The position numbers and the translations under genes were made by a program. Of a DNA stretch of 64,000 bases, positions 18,596 to 22,813 are shown piece after piece. The notes under the pieces are model-generated. The model saw nothing but the letters and a program-made list of their open reading frames with translations, was not told the origin of the DNA and made no database searches. The stretch covers positions 62,001 through 126,000 of the forward strand of contig NZ_QQZY01000002.1 in assembly GCF_003351045.1 (NCBI RefSeq). The letters are read 5' to 3'. Numbering within the stretch: the first letter of the stretch is position 1; every line of letters starts with the position of its first letter. This DNA comes from Gaiella occulta (lineage in GTDB: Bacteria > Actinomycetota > Thermoleophilia > Gaiellales > Gaiellaceae).

Positions 18596-19876
18596 GTGAT
18601 CCCGGTCGCATGGGACGAGGTCGCCGCGCTCGAGCTCGGCGCCCTCGAAGGAGGCGGCACGATCACCGGGATCACGGCAGACTCGCGTCTCGCCGGCCCG
18701 GGAGACCTCTTCGTCGCGCTCAACAGCGGCGTCGCCTACGTCGGCGAGGCCCGCGCGCGCGGCGCGTCGACGCTCGTCCCCGACGACCAGCACGCCGCGC
18801 TCGCGGCGCTCGCCTCGCTCGTGCGCGGGAAGAGCCCCGCCCGTATCGTCGCCGTCGTCGGCTCCACCGGCAAGACGTCGACGAAGGACATCCTGGGAGC
18901 GCTGTGCGCCGCCGTCACGCCCACCGTCTGGGCGGACGCGAGCCAGAACAACGAGATCGGCCTGCCGCTCACCGTCTGCCGGCTCGAGGTCGAGACGCGC
19001 GTGCTCGTGACCGAGATGGGCATGCGCGGGCTCGGCCAGGTCGGCGATCTCTGCGCGATCGCCCGTCCGCACGTCGCGGTCGTCACCTCGATCGGGCCCG
19101 AGCATCTCGAGCTCGTCGGCTCGATCGAGAACGTGGCACGCGCGAATGCCGAGGCGATCGCCGCGCTTCCCCCCGGGGGCGTCGCCGTCGTCCCCGCCGA
19201 CGCACCGCAGCTGGAGCCGTTCCTCGGCCGAACGGACATCGAGATCCGCCGCTTCGACCGCTCTGCCGCGAACCTCGACGGCGGCGCCTGGCGCTTCGCG
19301 CTTCCCGGGCGGGATCTCGTCCTCGAGCTTCCGTTCCGCTCACGCCACATGGCGGAGAATGCGCTCGCGGCCCTCACCGCCTACGACGCGCTCGGCCTCC
19401 CGCTCGGGCGCGCACAGGAGGGAGCATCGCGGATCGTGCTGTCCCGCTGGCGCGGGGAGGAGACGTCGCTCCCGGGGGGAGGCATGGTCGTCAACGACGC
19501 CTACAACGCCAACCCCACGTCGATGCACGCCGCGCTCGTCGACCTCGCGGAACGTGCCGGCGGGCGTCGGCGCGTCGCGATCCTCGGCGAGATGGCCGAG
19601 CTCGGCGACGACGCCGACCGCTACCACCGTGAGATCGGCGCGCTCGTCGCGCGGATCGGCATCCACGTGCTCGTCGCCGTCGGCGAGAACGCGCGCGGCT
19701 ACCTGCAGCCGGGCGTCGACGAGATGCATTGGATCCCGAACGTCGAAGCGTTCGACACCGTCGTGGGAGTCCTGCGGCCGGGCGACGCGGTGCTCGTCAA
19801 GGGCTCGCGCGCCGTCGGGCTCGAAGGCATCCCGGCCCGCATCGAGAAACTCGGCAGGACATGGTTCGCGTCCTGA
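18596..19876 (+). CDS. murF: UDP-N-acetylmuramoyl-tripeptide--D-alanyl-D-alanine ligase
   Basis: 426 residues. Mur ligase signatures: TADSRLAGPGDLFVAL at the N-terminus, P-loop VVGSTGKTSTKDILGAL, the NNEIGLPLTV motif, TEMGMRGLGQ and VNDAYNANPTSM. MurF completes the pentapeptide precursor. A strong ribosome-binding sequence (AAGGAG) precedes the GTG start by 6 bases. The 3' end overlaps mraY by 16 bp. Confidence 0.96.
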   Translation: MIPVAWDEVAALELGALEGGGTITGITADSRLAGPGDLFVALNSGVAYVGEARARGASTLVPDDQHAALAALASLVRGKSPARIVAVVGSTGKTSTKDILGALCAAVTPTVWADASQNNEIGLPLTVCRLEVETRVLVTEMGMRGLGQVGDLCAIARPHVAVVTSIGPEHLELVGSIENVARANAEAIAALPPGGVAVVPADAPQLEPFLGRTDIEIRRFDRSAANLDGGAWRFALPGRDLVLELPFRSRHMAENALAALTAYDALGLPLGRAQEGASRIVLSRWRGEETSLPGGGMVVNDAYNANPTSMHAALVDLAERAGGRRRVAILGEMAELGDDADRYHREIGALVARIGIHVLVAVGENARGYLQPGVDEMHWIPNVEAFDTVVGVLRPGDAVLVKGSRAVGLEGIPARIEKLGRTWFAS

Positions 19877-20874
19877 TCGCAGGGCTCGTCGCGATGGTGA
19901 TCGCCGTCGTGATCGGGCCCACATTCATCGACTGGCTGCGCCGAGCGGGCGTCGGCCAGCAGATCCGCGAAGAGGGGCCGGCGCGCCACATCGTCAAACA
20001 GGGGACGCCGACGATGGGCGGGCTGCTCATCCTCGCCTCGGCGATCGCCCCGTTCCTGCTCCTCTCCCGCTACACGATGCCCGGTCTCGCGCTCCTCTTC
20101 GCCACCGTCGGTTGCGGGCTGATCGGCTTCACCGACGACTACCTGAAGGTGCGCAGACGACGCTCGCTCGGGCTCTCCGGCCGCTGGAAGATGCTCGGGC
20201 TCGTCCTGATCACGATCGGGATCGGCTGGGTGGTCGGGCGCGTCGGCTACCTCGACACCGAGATCTACTTCCCTGTCGTCGACGTCAACATCGACCTGCG
20301 CTGGCTCTACTACCCGTTCCTGTTCGTCGTCATCGCGGGAACCGCGAACGGCGTCAACCTCACCGACGGCCTCGACGGCCTCGCCGCAGGGACGTCGGCG
20401 ATCTCGCTGCTCACGTTCCTCGCCATCGCGGCGATCTCGTGGATCCGCTCGGGCCCCCCCGGAGATCGCAGCAGCAACTACCTCGATGTCGCGATCTTCG
20501 CCGCCGCGCTGATCGGCGGCGTGATCGGGTTCCTCTGGTTCAACGCGTTCCCGGCAGAGGTGTTCATGGGGGACACCGGCTCGATGGCGCTCGGAGGCGC
20601 TATCGCCGTCCTCGCCGTGATGACCCAGACGGAGGTGCTGCTCGTCTTCATCGGCGCCATCTACCTGATCGAGGCGCTCTCCGTGATGATCCAGGTGGCG
20701 AGCTTCAAGCGCACAGGCCGGCGCGTGTTCCTGATGGCTCCGATCCACCACCACTTCGAGATGAAGGCGTGGTCGGAGACCAAGATCATGGTGCGGTTCT
20801 GGATCGTTGGGGCGATTCTCTGCACGATCGGGTTCGTGCTCTTCTACCGCTACTACCTGAGCTTCAAGAGATAG
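19861..20874 (+). CDS. mraY: Phospho-N-acetylmuramoyl-pentapeptide-transferase
   Basis: 337-residue integral membrane enzyme with about ten helices that makes lipid I from UDP-MurNAc-pentapeptide and undecaprenyl phosphate. Diagnostic loops: RHIVKQGTPTMGGLLI, the catalytic FTDDYLKVRRRRSLGL, GTANGVNLTDGLDGLAAG and MAPIHHHFEMKAWSE with the HHH motif. The ATG at 19861 lies within the murF 3' end. Downstream the dcw cluster is interrupted by an AT-rich insert before murD. Confidence 0.97.
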   Translation: MVRVLIAGLVAMVIAVVIGPTFIDWLRRAGVGQQIREEGPARHIVKQGTPTMGGLLILASAIAPFLLLSRYTMPGLALLFATVGCGLIGFTDDYLKVRRRRSLGLSGRWKMLGLVLITIGIGWVVGRVGYLDTEIYFPVVDVNIDLRWLYYPFLFVVIAGTANGVNLTDGLDGLAAGTSAISLLTFLAIAAISWIRSGPPGDRSSNYLDVAIFAAALIGGVIGFLWFNAFPAEVFMGDTGSMALGGAIAVLAVMTQTEVLLVFIGAIYLIEALSVMIQVASFKRTGRRVFLMAPIHHHFEMKAWSETKIMVRFWIVGAILCTIGFVLFYRYYLSFKR

Positions 20875-20994
20875 CAGCGGCGTCTCTAGCTGCCCATCCG
20901 GAGTGCGCATTGTCCGACCCGACGCCGAGAAAAGATCACCCGATCAGGTAGTACGTATCTGTCCTGAGGCAAACTATTCTCGACTGCGATCAAC

Positions 20995-21093
20995 TTGTTC
21001 GACAAGGAGGGTGCCACAAAGACCAGGAAGGCTTCGAGAGACATCGGTTTGACTGCGGCATTGATCAACCAATTCAACTTGAAGGAATCATGA
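20995..21093 (+). CDS. Possible short leader ORF in the AT-rich insert
   Basis: A 32-codon frame with a TTG start, reading FDKEGATKTRKASRDIG and ending NQFNLKES. Its TGA overlaps the ATG of the secreted protein gene by 4 bp, the same coupling style used elsewhere in the window. There is no clear Shine-Dalgarno sequence before the TTG, and no family is recognised, so it may be a leader peptide, a gene remnant or chance. Confidence 0.28.
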   Translation: MFDKEGATKTRKASRDIGLTAALINQFNLKES

Positions 21094-21455
21094 GAAGGTT
21101 TCTCATTGCCTCAGTTCTGATCAGCCTCGTAGCTCTTGCGTCCTTCTCTGGAGTCGGGCGAGCCAGGATCTCCGCTACATGCGATCCGACGAACCTCCGC
21201 ATGACCACCGGCGGCGGCACGGTAACGGCGCGGGCCACCGCCCCTTGCGGGTTCACCGCCTACGATGTCTGTTTGCAGAACAATAGCGGCAGCGGATGGA
21301 GTTCTTCCTTCGCCTGCAACCATTGGGAAGTCATCTCGGGCCCGATGGCGATCAACTCCCAGGCATGGTCGTACGGGTGCGGCACCGCCTACAGGCCGGT
21401 TGCTAGGAAGAGCGGCAACGCTTGGGTAGTTGGGGCATCTAGCTTCTTCTGCTAG
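21090..21455 (+). CDS. Secreted six-cysteine protein of unknown function
   Basis: 121 residues. An N-terminal signal peptide is clear (MRRFLIASVLISLVALASF, likely cleavage after GVGRA), and the mature part of roughly 95 residues has six Cys (in ATCDPT, APCGFT, YDVCLQ, FACNHW, YGCGTA and a C-terminal FFC), enough for three disulfides, plus a Gly/Thr-rich beta-like pattern. A good AAGGA ribosome-binding site precedes ATG 21090. Base composition is far below the neighbours, suggesting acquisition. It lies between mraY and murD, where no accessory gene is normal. No family is recognised. Confidence 0.75.
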   Translation: MRRFLIASVLISLVALASFSGVGRARISATCDPTNLRMTTGGGTVTARATAPCGFTAYDVCLQNNSGSGWSSSFACNHWEVISGPMAINSQAWSYGCGTAYRPVARKSGNAWVVGASSFFC

Positions 21456-21568
21456 TGGCCCATGTCTAAGGTCTGATCGCGCCGAACGCCTGCGACCTAG
21501 AACTCACCGCACCTGACGGCGCCGGGAGTTCTAGCGGCGGGACAACATCAAGCGTCTAGGCTTCCGGG

Positions 21569-22813
21569 ATGGCACCGATCCCCGATCGCGTGGTCGTCGT
21601 CGGGCTTGCCCGCTCCGGACGGGCGGCGGCGGCGGCCCTGCGGGCCCACGGCTCCGATGTCGTCGCCTACGACGCCGACGCCGCGGTGGACGTGGTGGGA
21701 ATCGACGCCGAGATCCGGCTCGGCGACTGGGACGACGCGCTTCTCGACGACAGCGGGCTCGTCGTCAAGAGCCCCGGCGTGCCGGAGGAGTCGCCGCCGG
21801 TGGCGGCCGCACGCGCCCGCGGGATTCCCGTCGCGTCCGAGATCGAGCTCGGCGCCCGCCTGCTCGCCAACCCGATCATCGGCATCACCGGCACCAACGG
21901 GAAGACGACGACGACGGCGCTGCTGGGGGCGATCTTCGCGGCCGCCGGCGCCCCGGCCGAGGTCGCGGGCAACATCGGCCGGCCGCTCACGAGCCTCGTC
22001 GGCGCCGTCGACGAGGACGCGTGGATCGTCTGCGAGCTCTCGTCGTTCCAGCTCGAGGACGTCGACACGCTGCGCCCGCGCATCGCGGTGCTGCTGAACC
22101 TCGAGCCCGACCACATCGACCGCCACGGCAGCTTCGAGGCGTACCGTGCCGCGAAGCTGCGGATCTTCGAGAACCAGGGGCCGGGCGACGTCGCCGTGGT
22201 GCCGCGCGGATTCGCGCCGCTGCCGGGCCGCGCCGCACGCGTCGAGTTCTGCGCAGACGACCCGCTGCCCGCCGAGCCGCGCATCCCCGGTGCGCACAAC
22301 CGTGAGAACGCCGCAGCCGCCGTCGCGGCCGCACGCGCGGCCGGCATCGGCGAGGGGGCGATCGCCGCAGCGCTCCGTGCCTTCCCGGGCGTCGAGCACC
22401 GGATCGAGGAGGTCGCCGTCGTCGACGGCGTGCGCTATGTCAACGACTCGAAGGCGACGAACGTCGCCGCTGCCCTGCGGGCGCTCGCGTCGTTCCCGGG
22501 CGCGCGGCTGCACGTCGTGCTCGGCGGCCTCGGCAAGCGCGAGAGCTACGCGCCGCTGGCGGCGGCGCTCGGGCCGGAGGACAGGGCCTACCTGATCGGA
22601 GACGCCGCAGGCGACATCGCGGCGGCGCTCGAGGCCGCGAGCGTGCGGTTCACGCACGAGGGCGCACTGGAGGCTGCGATCGCCGCCGCGCGCCGTGCGG
22701 CTGCCCCGGGCGACGTCGTGCTGCTCTCCCCGGCGTGCGCGAGCTTCGACCAGTTCACGAGCTTCGAGCAGCGCGGGGAGGAGTTTCGCAGGCTGGTGCA
22801 GAACCTCCAGTAG
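21569..22813 (+). CDS. murD: UDP-N-acetylmuramoylalanine--D-glutamate ligase
   Basis: 414 residues. N-terminal Rossmann-like VVVVGLARSGRAAAAAL, VVKSPGVPEESP, P-loop GITGTNGKTTTTALL, CELSSFQLEDVDTL, LNLEPDHIDRHGS and the C-terminal VNDSKATN and LLSPACASFDQFTSFEQRG are all present. MurD adds D-glutamate to UDP-MurNAc-L-Ala. ATG 21569 follows a 113-bp gap after the Cys-rich gene, so it may need its own promoter. Its TAG overlaps the ftsW GTG by one base. Confidence 0.97.
   Translation: MAPIPDRVVVVGLARSGRAAAAALRAHGSDVVAYDADAAVDVVGIDAEIRLGDWDDALLDDSGLVVKSPGVPEESPPVAAARARGIPVASEIELGARLLANPIIGITGTNGKTTTTALLGAIFAAAGAPAEVAGNIGRPLTSLVGAVDEDAWIVCELSSFQLEDVDTLRPRIAVLLNLEPDHIDRHGSFEAYRAAKLRIFENQGPGDVAVVPRGFAPLPGRAARVEFCADDPLPAEPRIPGAHNRENAAAAVAAARAAGIGEGAIAAALRAFPGVEHRIEEVAVVDGVRYVNDSKATNVAAALRALASFPGARLHVVLGGLGKRESYAPLAAALGPEDRAYLIGDAAGDIAAALEAASVRFTHEGALEAAIAAARRAAAPGDVVLLSPACASFDQFTSFEQRGEEFRRLVQNLQ

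What the first reader, a model, noticed from the sequence alone, without database searches (positions are those of the whole stretch)
20875..21568. Low-GC insert in the dcw cluster encoding a secreted Cys-rich protein
Between mraY and murD, normally adjacent, lies a roughly 690-bp segment of much lower GC (28 of 60 bases, 47%, in 20941-21000). It carries a signal-peptide, six-Cys protein with good RBS. Such an insert in an essential operon suggests recent acquisition, possibly a toxin, inhibitor or wall-interacting factor.
Basis: partly seen in the sequence, partly recalled or inferred. Interest (0 to 1): 0.6.

Follow-up and report, generated by a model that had tools for sequence, protein, structure and literature searches.

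The report
Orphan secreted-protein gene at cell-wall junction
Between two essential cell-wall genes that are usually joined, this actinobacterium carries a small AT-richer gene for a secreted cysteine-rich protein of unknown function; relatives show that this junction repeatedly takes up unrelated genes, and the downstream essential gene appears to have its own start signal that would make this harmless.

Summary
20875-21568 separates mraY from murD, has 58.8% GC against 72.6% for the window (its only stretch below 60%), and carries a 121-codon ORF (21090-21455, +) with a Sec-type signal peptide and six Cys. The ORF is probably real: length, signal peptide and Cys together occur in 1 of 3000 shuffles, although length alone is unremarkable. 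It is an orphan: no Pfam, NCBIfam, PHROGs or PADLOC hit, no convincing PDB hit, no convincing relative in sampled class and phylum genomes, plasmids or phages; only a tentative paralogue in the same genome.

The 'insert in an essential operon' reading needs changing. In this bacterial family the mraY-murD junction is a recurrent insertion site: 29 of 80 loci have >=150 bp there, versus 0-1 at five neighbouring junctions. Occupants are unrelated (SAM-methyltransferase and shortened versions, EamA transporter, phosphoesterase, PIN). Four of six genus-mates carry EamA there. In six of seven genus members murD has a TANNNT box exactly 6 nt before its start, a predicted leaderless promoter; the member with overlapping genes lacks it. 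So the gene most likely sits between two transcription units. Toxin, inhibitor or wall-factor roles are unsupported; the protein's function remains undetermined.

The parts
20875..21568 (.). segment between mraY stop and murD start; 694 bp, 58.8% GC
20875..21089 (+). non-coding, lowest-GC (53%) 5' part upstream of the ORF; presumed leader/promoter region, no promoter detected
21081..21086 (+). moderate Shine-Dalgarno-like GAAGGA, 3 nt before the ORF start
   Evidence: sequence
21090..21455 (+). ORF of 121 aa (stop included in coordinates): signal peptide about residues 1-25 and six-Cys mature part of about 96 aa; no known family
21497..21534 (+). strong hairpin between ORF and murD (17-nt arms, 82% complementary; fold of 21490-21545 -26.1 kcal/mol, z -3.4), no T-tract; possible terminator
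21557..21562 (+). TAGGCT, predicted -10 box of a leaderless murD promoter, exactly 6 nt before ATG
21569..22813 (+). murD, start of the downstream dcw transcription unit (inferred)
19861..20874 (+). mraY, upstream neighbour, intact to its C-terminus

Best explanation
A species-level accessory gene for a small, Sec-exported, probably disulfide-bonded (six Cys) protein sits in a tolerated insertion site between two transcription units of the dcw cluster. Shown: the gene is absent at this junction in all relatives examined, the junction is repeatedly occupied by unrelated genes in this family, and it is tight in the sister families sampled. Inferred from sequence: in the ancestor of the window's sub-clade the mraY-murD overlap was opened and murD gained a leaderless promoter (TANNNT-N6-start), so murD and the genes after it no longer depend on read-through from mraY; genes can then come and go in the gap (EamA in four genus-mates, this gene here) without harming the essential genes. 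Weakest inference: the product acts outside the cytoplasm as a small disulfide-stabilised domain in a non-essential role, and is not part of wall synthesis.
For: Junction statistics: mraY-murD gap >=150 bp in 29/80 loci (>=300 bp in 23), against murE-murF 1/67, murF-mraY 0/75, ftsW-murG 0/70, murG-murC 1/65, murC-murB 1/61. In 17 genomes of other families of the order this gap is -13 to +51 bp. Occupants: SAM-methyltransferase and shortened versions, EamA, metallophosphoesterase, PIN, a 742-aa minus-strand ORF. Tree of mraY+murD: G006 (overlap, no insert) is sister to a 99%-supported clade of the window, G001, G002 and G004, the latter three with EamA; at least 7 changes between occupied and empty. 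murD box TA[CG]GCT-N6-RTG in 6/6 genus members with an interrupted junction, absent in G006; background 10 of 5486 RTG triplets. TANNNT about 12 bp before the start is the published mark of leaderless genes, on average about 19% of actinobacterial genes (PMC3160421; see also PMC3898074). Gene plausibility 1 of 3000 shuffles.
Against: No transcript or protein data. The ORF has no clear homologue, so selection on it cannot be measured, and its length alone is within chance. No promoter was found for it. The order of events (EamA lost here, or never present here) is unresolved: the tree shows a polytomy, and the G004 row has a split murD and a long branch. Outside the genus, most loci with insertions do not show the murD -10 box, so the promoter explanation covers the genus and not all insertions.
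Confidence: 0.6

Rival explanations
1. Recently acquired foreign gene (by horizontal transfer) that encodes a secreted toxin, protease inhibitor or wall-acting factor, co-expressed with wall synthesis from the mraY promoter.
For: Atypical GC and GC3, signal peptide and six Cys, same strand as the operon, species-restricted. The Streptomyces subtilisin inhibitor appears among weak PDB matches over residues 29-112 (E 0.24).
Against: No toxin, inhibitor or defence family hit; no immunity or partner gene in the segment; no donor found in genome, viral, plasmid or phage collections; other genes at this spot are housekeeping-like and unrelated; a hairpin and a separate murD promoter argue against operon membership.
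Confidence: 0.12
2. Diverged member of the small secreted Cys-containing family found at G000:C5:7632-8042 (L067) and in G009 (L068), which in its other members is paired with a membrane protein and, in G009, an ECF sigma factor; this copy moved away from that pair into the mraY-murD gap.
For: phmmer match to L067 E 0.005 in the whole genome and the reverse E 0.005; best of 10,438 ORFs to a profile of the family, E 0.024; local alignment of the mature N-terminal half RxxATCxP...AP..AYDVxLxN beaten by 3 of 3000 shuffles; similar codon-position GC profile.
Against: Match confined to the first ~45 mature residues; no significant match to L068 (270 of 3000 shuffles as good); the family's conserved C-terminal YINVxGxGxSDTSG is absent; conserved neighbour is missing.
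Confidence: 0.3
3. Not a functional gene: intergenic DNA (for example the decayed remains of an earlier inserted gene) with a chance ORF.
For: ORF length is reached in 9% (ATG only) to 19% of shuffles; no homologue; GC is near what relaxed drift towards AT would give; shortened versions of other inserted genes occur at this junction.
Against: Signal peptide plus Cys content almost never arise in shuffles (1 of 3000); moderate SD in place; no trace of EamA or methyltransferase in the segment.
Confidence: 0.15

Closest known systems
L067/L068 small secreted proteins (this genome, contig C5, and family member G009); no database name
   Same: Signal peptide, mature start A/S-R-x-x-A-T-C-x-P, AYDVxLxN-like motif, low GC3, C-terminal Cys
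   Different: Longer (132-137 aa), fewer Cys, conserved C-terminal YINV motif, paired with a conserved membrane protein; match to the window protein is borderline
EamA transporter gene between mraY and murD in G001, G002, G003, G004 (same genus)
   Same: Same junction, same strand, followed by a murD start with the TA[CG]GCT-N6 box; hairpin in G002
   Different: Unrelated protein (PF00892), normal GC 68-75%
SAM-methyltransferase-like genes at the same junction in other genera of the family
   Same: Same junction and strand
   Different: Unrelated protein, begins overlapping the mraY stop, normal GC, several truncated forms
Streptomyces subtilisin inhibitor (SSI)
   Same: Small secreted disulfide protein of an actinobacterium; weak PDB sequence match E 0.24
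   Different: No Pfam match at E up to 10; more Cys here than the SSI pattern (from general knowledge two disulfides)

Membership tests
Conserved dcw-cluster gene | present at the same position across the class | tested here: not met
   absent at the junction in all other 79 family loci and 17 loci of other families; no convincing homologue in 299 class and 396 phylum genomes
Streptomyces subtilisin inhibitor family | profile match | tested here: not met
   no Pfam or NCBIfam match at E up to 10; PDB phmmer E 0.24 only
iota-carbonic anhydrase | sequence match over the domain | tested here: inconclusive
   whole-sequence E 1.7e-4 comes from three repeats each with i-Evalue 9-71 over 37-41 residues; not credible alone
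L067/L068 secreted family | significant similarity over the mature protein | tested here: inconclusive
   E 0.005 and 3/3000 shuffles against L067, N-terminal half only; not significant against L068
L067/L068 secreted family | adjacent conserved membrane protein | tested here: not met
   neighbours are mraY and murD; the membrane protein is next to L067, L068 and L069
Toxin-immunity or toxin-antitoxin unit | partner gene and a known toxin or immunity domain | tested here: not met
   no second plausible gene in 694 bp; no PADLOC, Pfam, NCBIfam match
Mobile element or repeat copy | further copies in the genome, flanking repeats, mobility gene | tested here: not met
   no second copy, no long flanking repeats, no mobility ORF
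Integron gene cassette | attC site | not tested
   only looked at by eye; no dedicated attC search was run
Leaderless gene (murD) | TANNNT about 12 bp before the start codon, no SD | tested here: met
   TAGGCT at 21557-21562; conserved box and spacing in 6/6 genus members; criterion from PMC3160421
Leaderless gene (murD) | mapped transcript start at the start codon | not testable with these tools
   needs RNA

The most novel reading that the evidence does not exclude
The mraY-murD junction of this actinobacterial family is a real insertion hotspot inside a cluster thought to have essentially no gene gain: a relocated leaderless promoter upstream of murD split the cluster into two units and created a safe, well-expressed landing site, and the window's gene is a newly born or newly acquired secreted protein of a fold not yet described.
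Probability: 0.3. Interest if true: 0.55.

Novelty: new variant of a known kind. Interest (0 to 1): 0.4.

Why it matters
[quoted passage not shown] Repeated gene gain at one junction in one family, with a conserved promoter at the downstream gene, gives a testable account of how a locked essential cluster opens. The secreted protein itself is one more orphan among many; it matters mainly as one occupant of the site.

Tried and rejected
Class-wide hits of the protein at residues 61-118 (E about 1e-3): read through and recognised as short-chain dehydrogenases matched by chance. Other sub-threshold hits were out-of-frame or arginine-rich antisense frames. Structure prediction of the mature protein alone: mean pLDDT 48.7, too poor for a fold search, so none was run. 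Rfam: no RNA family in 20800-21700. sigma-70 promoter and T-tract terminator scans: nothing. Second copies or mobile-element repeats: none. Remnants of EamA or methyltransferase in the window's segment: none. Genome contigs, viral contigs, plasmids, phages: no close relative; family alignment found only the record of G009. The 10-bp perfect inverted repeat 20851-20860/20944-20953 is expected by chance at this length and was dropped.

Full report
Observation. The stretch 20875-21568 lies exactly between the mraY stop (20874) and the murD ATG (21569). Its GC is 58.8% against 72.6% in the window; it holds every 300-bp window below 60% GC, and the stated 28 of 60 in 20941-21000 is exact. The composition is uneven: 53% in the non-coding 5' 215 bp, 61% in the ORF, 64% downstream. 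The ORF 21090-21455 encodes MRRFLIASVLISLVALASFSGVGRARISATC..., a clear Sec-type signal peptide (judged by eye) and six Cys in about 96 mature residues. A 121-codon ORF is not rare in shuffles of this segment (9% for ATG starts), but one with a signal-peptide-like start is (9 of 3000), and with five or more Cys rarer (1 of 3000). I take it as probably a gene.

What the protein is. No match in Pfam, PHROGs, NCBIfam or PADLOC at E up to 10. PDB matches are weak: an iota-carbonic anhydrase score summed over three poor repeats, and subtilisin inhibitor at E 0.24. 299 genomes of the class and 396 of the phylum gave only chance hits, mostly short-chain dehydrogenases; plasmid, phage, viral and genome collections gave none. 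One ORF of the same genome, G000:C5:7632-8042 (L067), matches at E 0.005 in both directions, over the start of the mature part only (RxxATCxP...AYDVxLxN); 3 of 3000 shuffles do as well. L067 has a solid homologue in G009 (E 7.5e-20) and a fragment in G003; next to all three is a homologous membrane protein (E 1e-10 to 1e-20), and in G009 an ECF sigma factor. The window protein may be a diverged relative, but this is not established. An AlphaFold2 model without alignment has mean pLDDT 48.7 and says nothing useful.

What the place is. I fetched the dcw region of 80 genomes of the same family and measured the gap at each junction. mraY-murD is >=150 bp in 29 of 80 and >=300 bp in 23, while murE-murF, murF-mraY, ftsW-murG, murG-murC and murC-murB together give 3 such cases. 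murD-ftsW (10/77), murB-ftsQ (10/57) and ftsI-murE (21/60) are also variable. In 17 genomes from other families of the order the mraY-murD gap is -13 to +51 bp. The occupants are unrelated: a SAM-methyltransferase (PF13847/PF08241) full-length in four loci and shortened in others, EamA (PF00892), a minus-strand metallophosphoesterase (PF12850), a minus-strand PIN-like gene, a 742-aa minus-strand ORF, and here the Cys-rich protein. On a tree of mraY+murD the occupied state needs at least 7 changes; the methyltransferase accounts for most loci and may be old, so these are fewer events than the 29 loci suggest.

Within the genus. G001, G002, G003 and G004 have EamA at this junction; G004 also the 742-aa ORF; G005 has a divergent Xan_ur_permease gene upstream of murD, its mraY lying at the edge of another contig; G006 has overlapping mraY and murD. 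The tree puts G006 sister to the window, G001, G002 and G004 (99% SH-aLRT; G003 and G005 were not in the tree). The window's genome has no orthologue of that EamA (best 29% identity) and no remnant of it in the segment.

Why it is tolerated. In all six genus members with an interrupted junction the murD start is preceded at exactly 6 nt by TA[CG]GCT (TAGGCT TCCGGG ATG in the window); G006 has none. The chance rate for TANNNT at that offset before any RTG is 10 of 5486. This is the published signature of leaderless genes in high-GC actinobacteria (PMC3160421; PMC3898074). A hairpin without T-tract lies between ORF and murD (z -3.4), and a stronger one follows EamA in G002 (z -6.6) but not in G001. 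I infer that murD starts its own transcription unit in this genus, so a gene in the gap is not within an essential operon. Outside the genus most loci with insertions lack this box, often because the inserted gene overlaps both neighbours and may be translationally coupled.

Interpretation. Best account: a lineage-specific accessory secreted protein in a tolerated landing site (0.6). Foreign toxin/inhibitor/wall factor: 0.12. Relative of the L067 family: 0.3, compatible with the first. Non-gene: 0.15. Whether the gene came by transfer or arose in place cannot be told; low GC alone does not decide it, since L067 and L068 have a similar profile.

Identity of the organism is not given. A record identical in length to the G009 contig is titled 'Actinobacteria bacterium isolate AC_30', so the family belongs to the actinobacteria in the broad NCBI sense; I did not determine it further.

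Noticed in passing
L122, L142, L149, L111 (full); L126, L128, L134, L139, L146 (about 157 aa); L138, L148, L151, L152, L154, L159 (about 80-85 aa): A SAM-methyltransferase-like gene at the mraY-murD junction occurs in full-length and in two shortened forms; the shortest keep 60-72% identity among several species, as if a half-domain remnant were under selection.
   Followed up: partly
L067 1501-1911 (-), L068 1492-1887 (-), L069: A small secreted Cys-containing protein is next to a conserved unnamed membrane protein in three genomes, with an ECF sigma factor in G009: an undescribed putative signalling or stress module.
   Followed up: partly
L163 (G004), between EamA and murD: A 742-aa minus-strand ORF resembling a glycoside-hydrolase-like secreted protein by eye, without Pfam match for its first 498 residues.
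   Followed up: no
family dcw loci, ftsI-murE junction: The ftsI-murE gap is also variable, with inserts of about 1.2 kb and 2.2-2.4 kb in seven loci; contents not examined.
   Followed up: no
window 21004-21010: A perfect AAGGAGG Shine-Dalgarno-like heptamer in the 5' non-coding part without a suitable start codon behind it.
   Followed up: no
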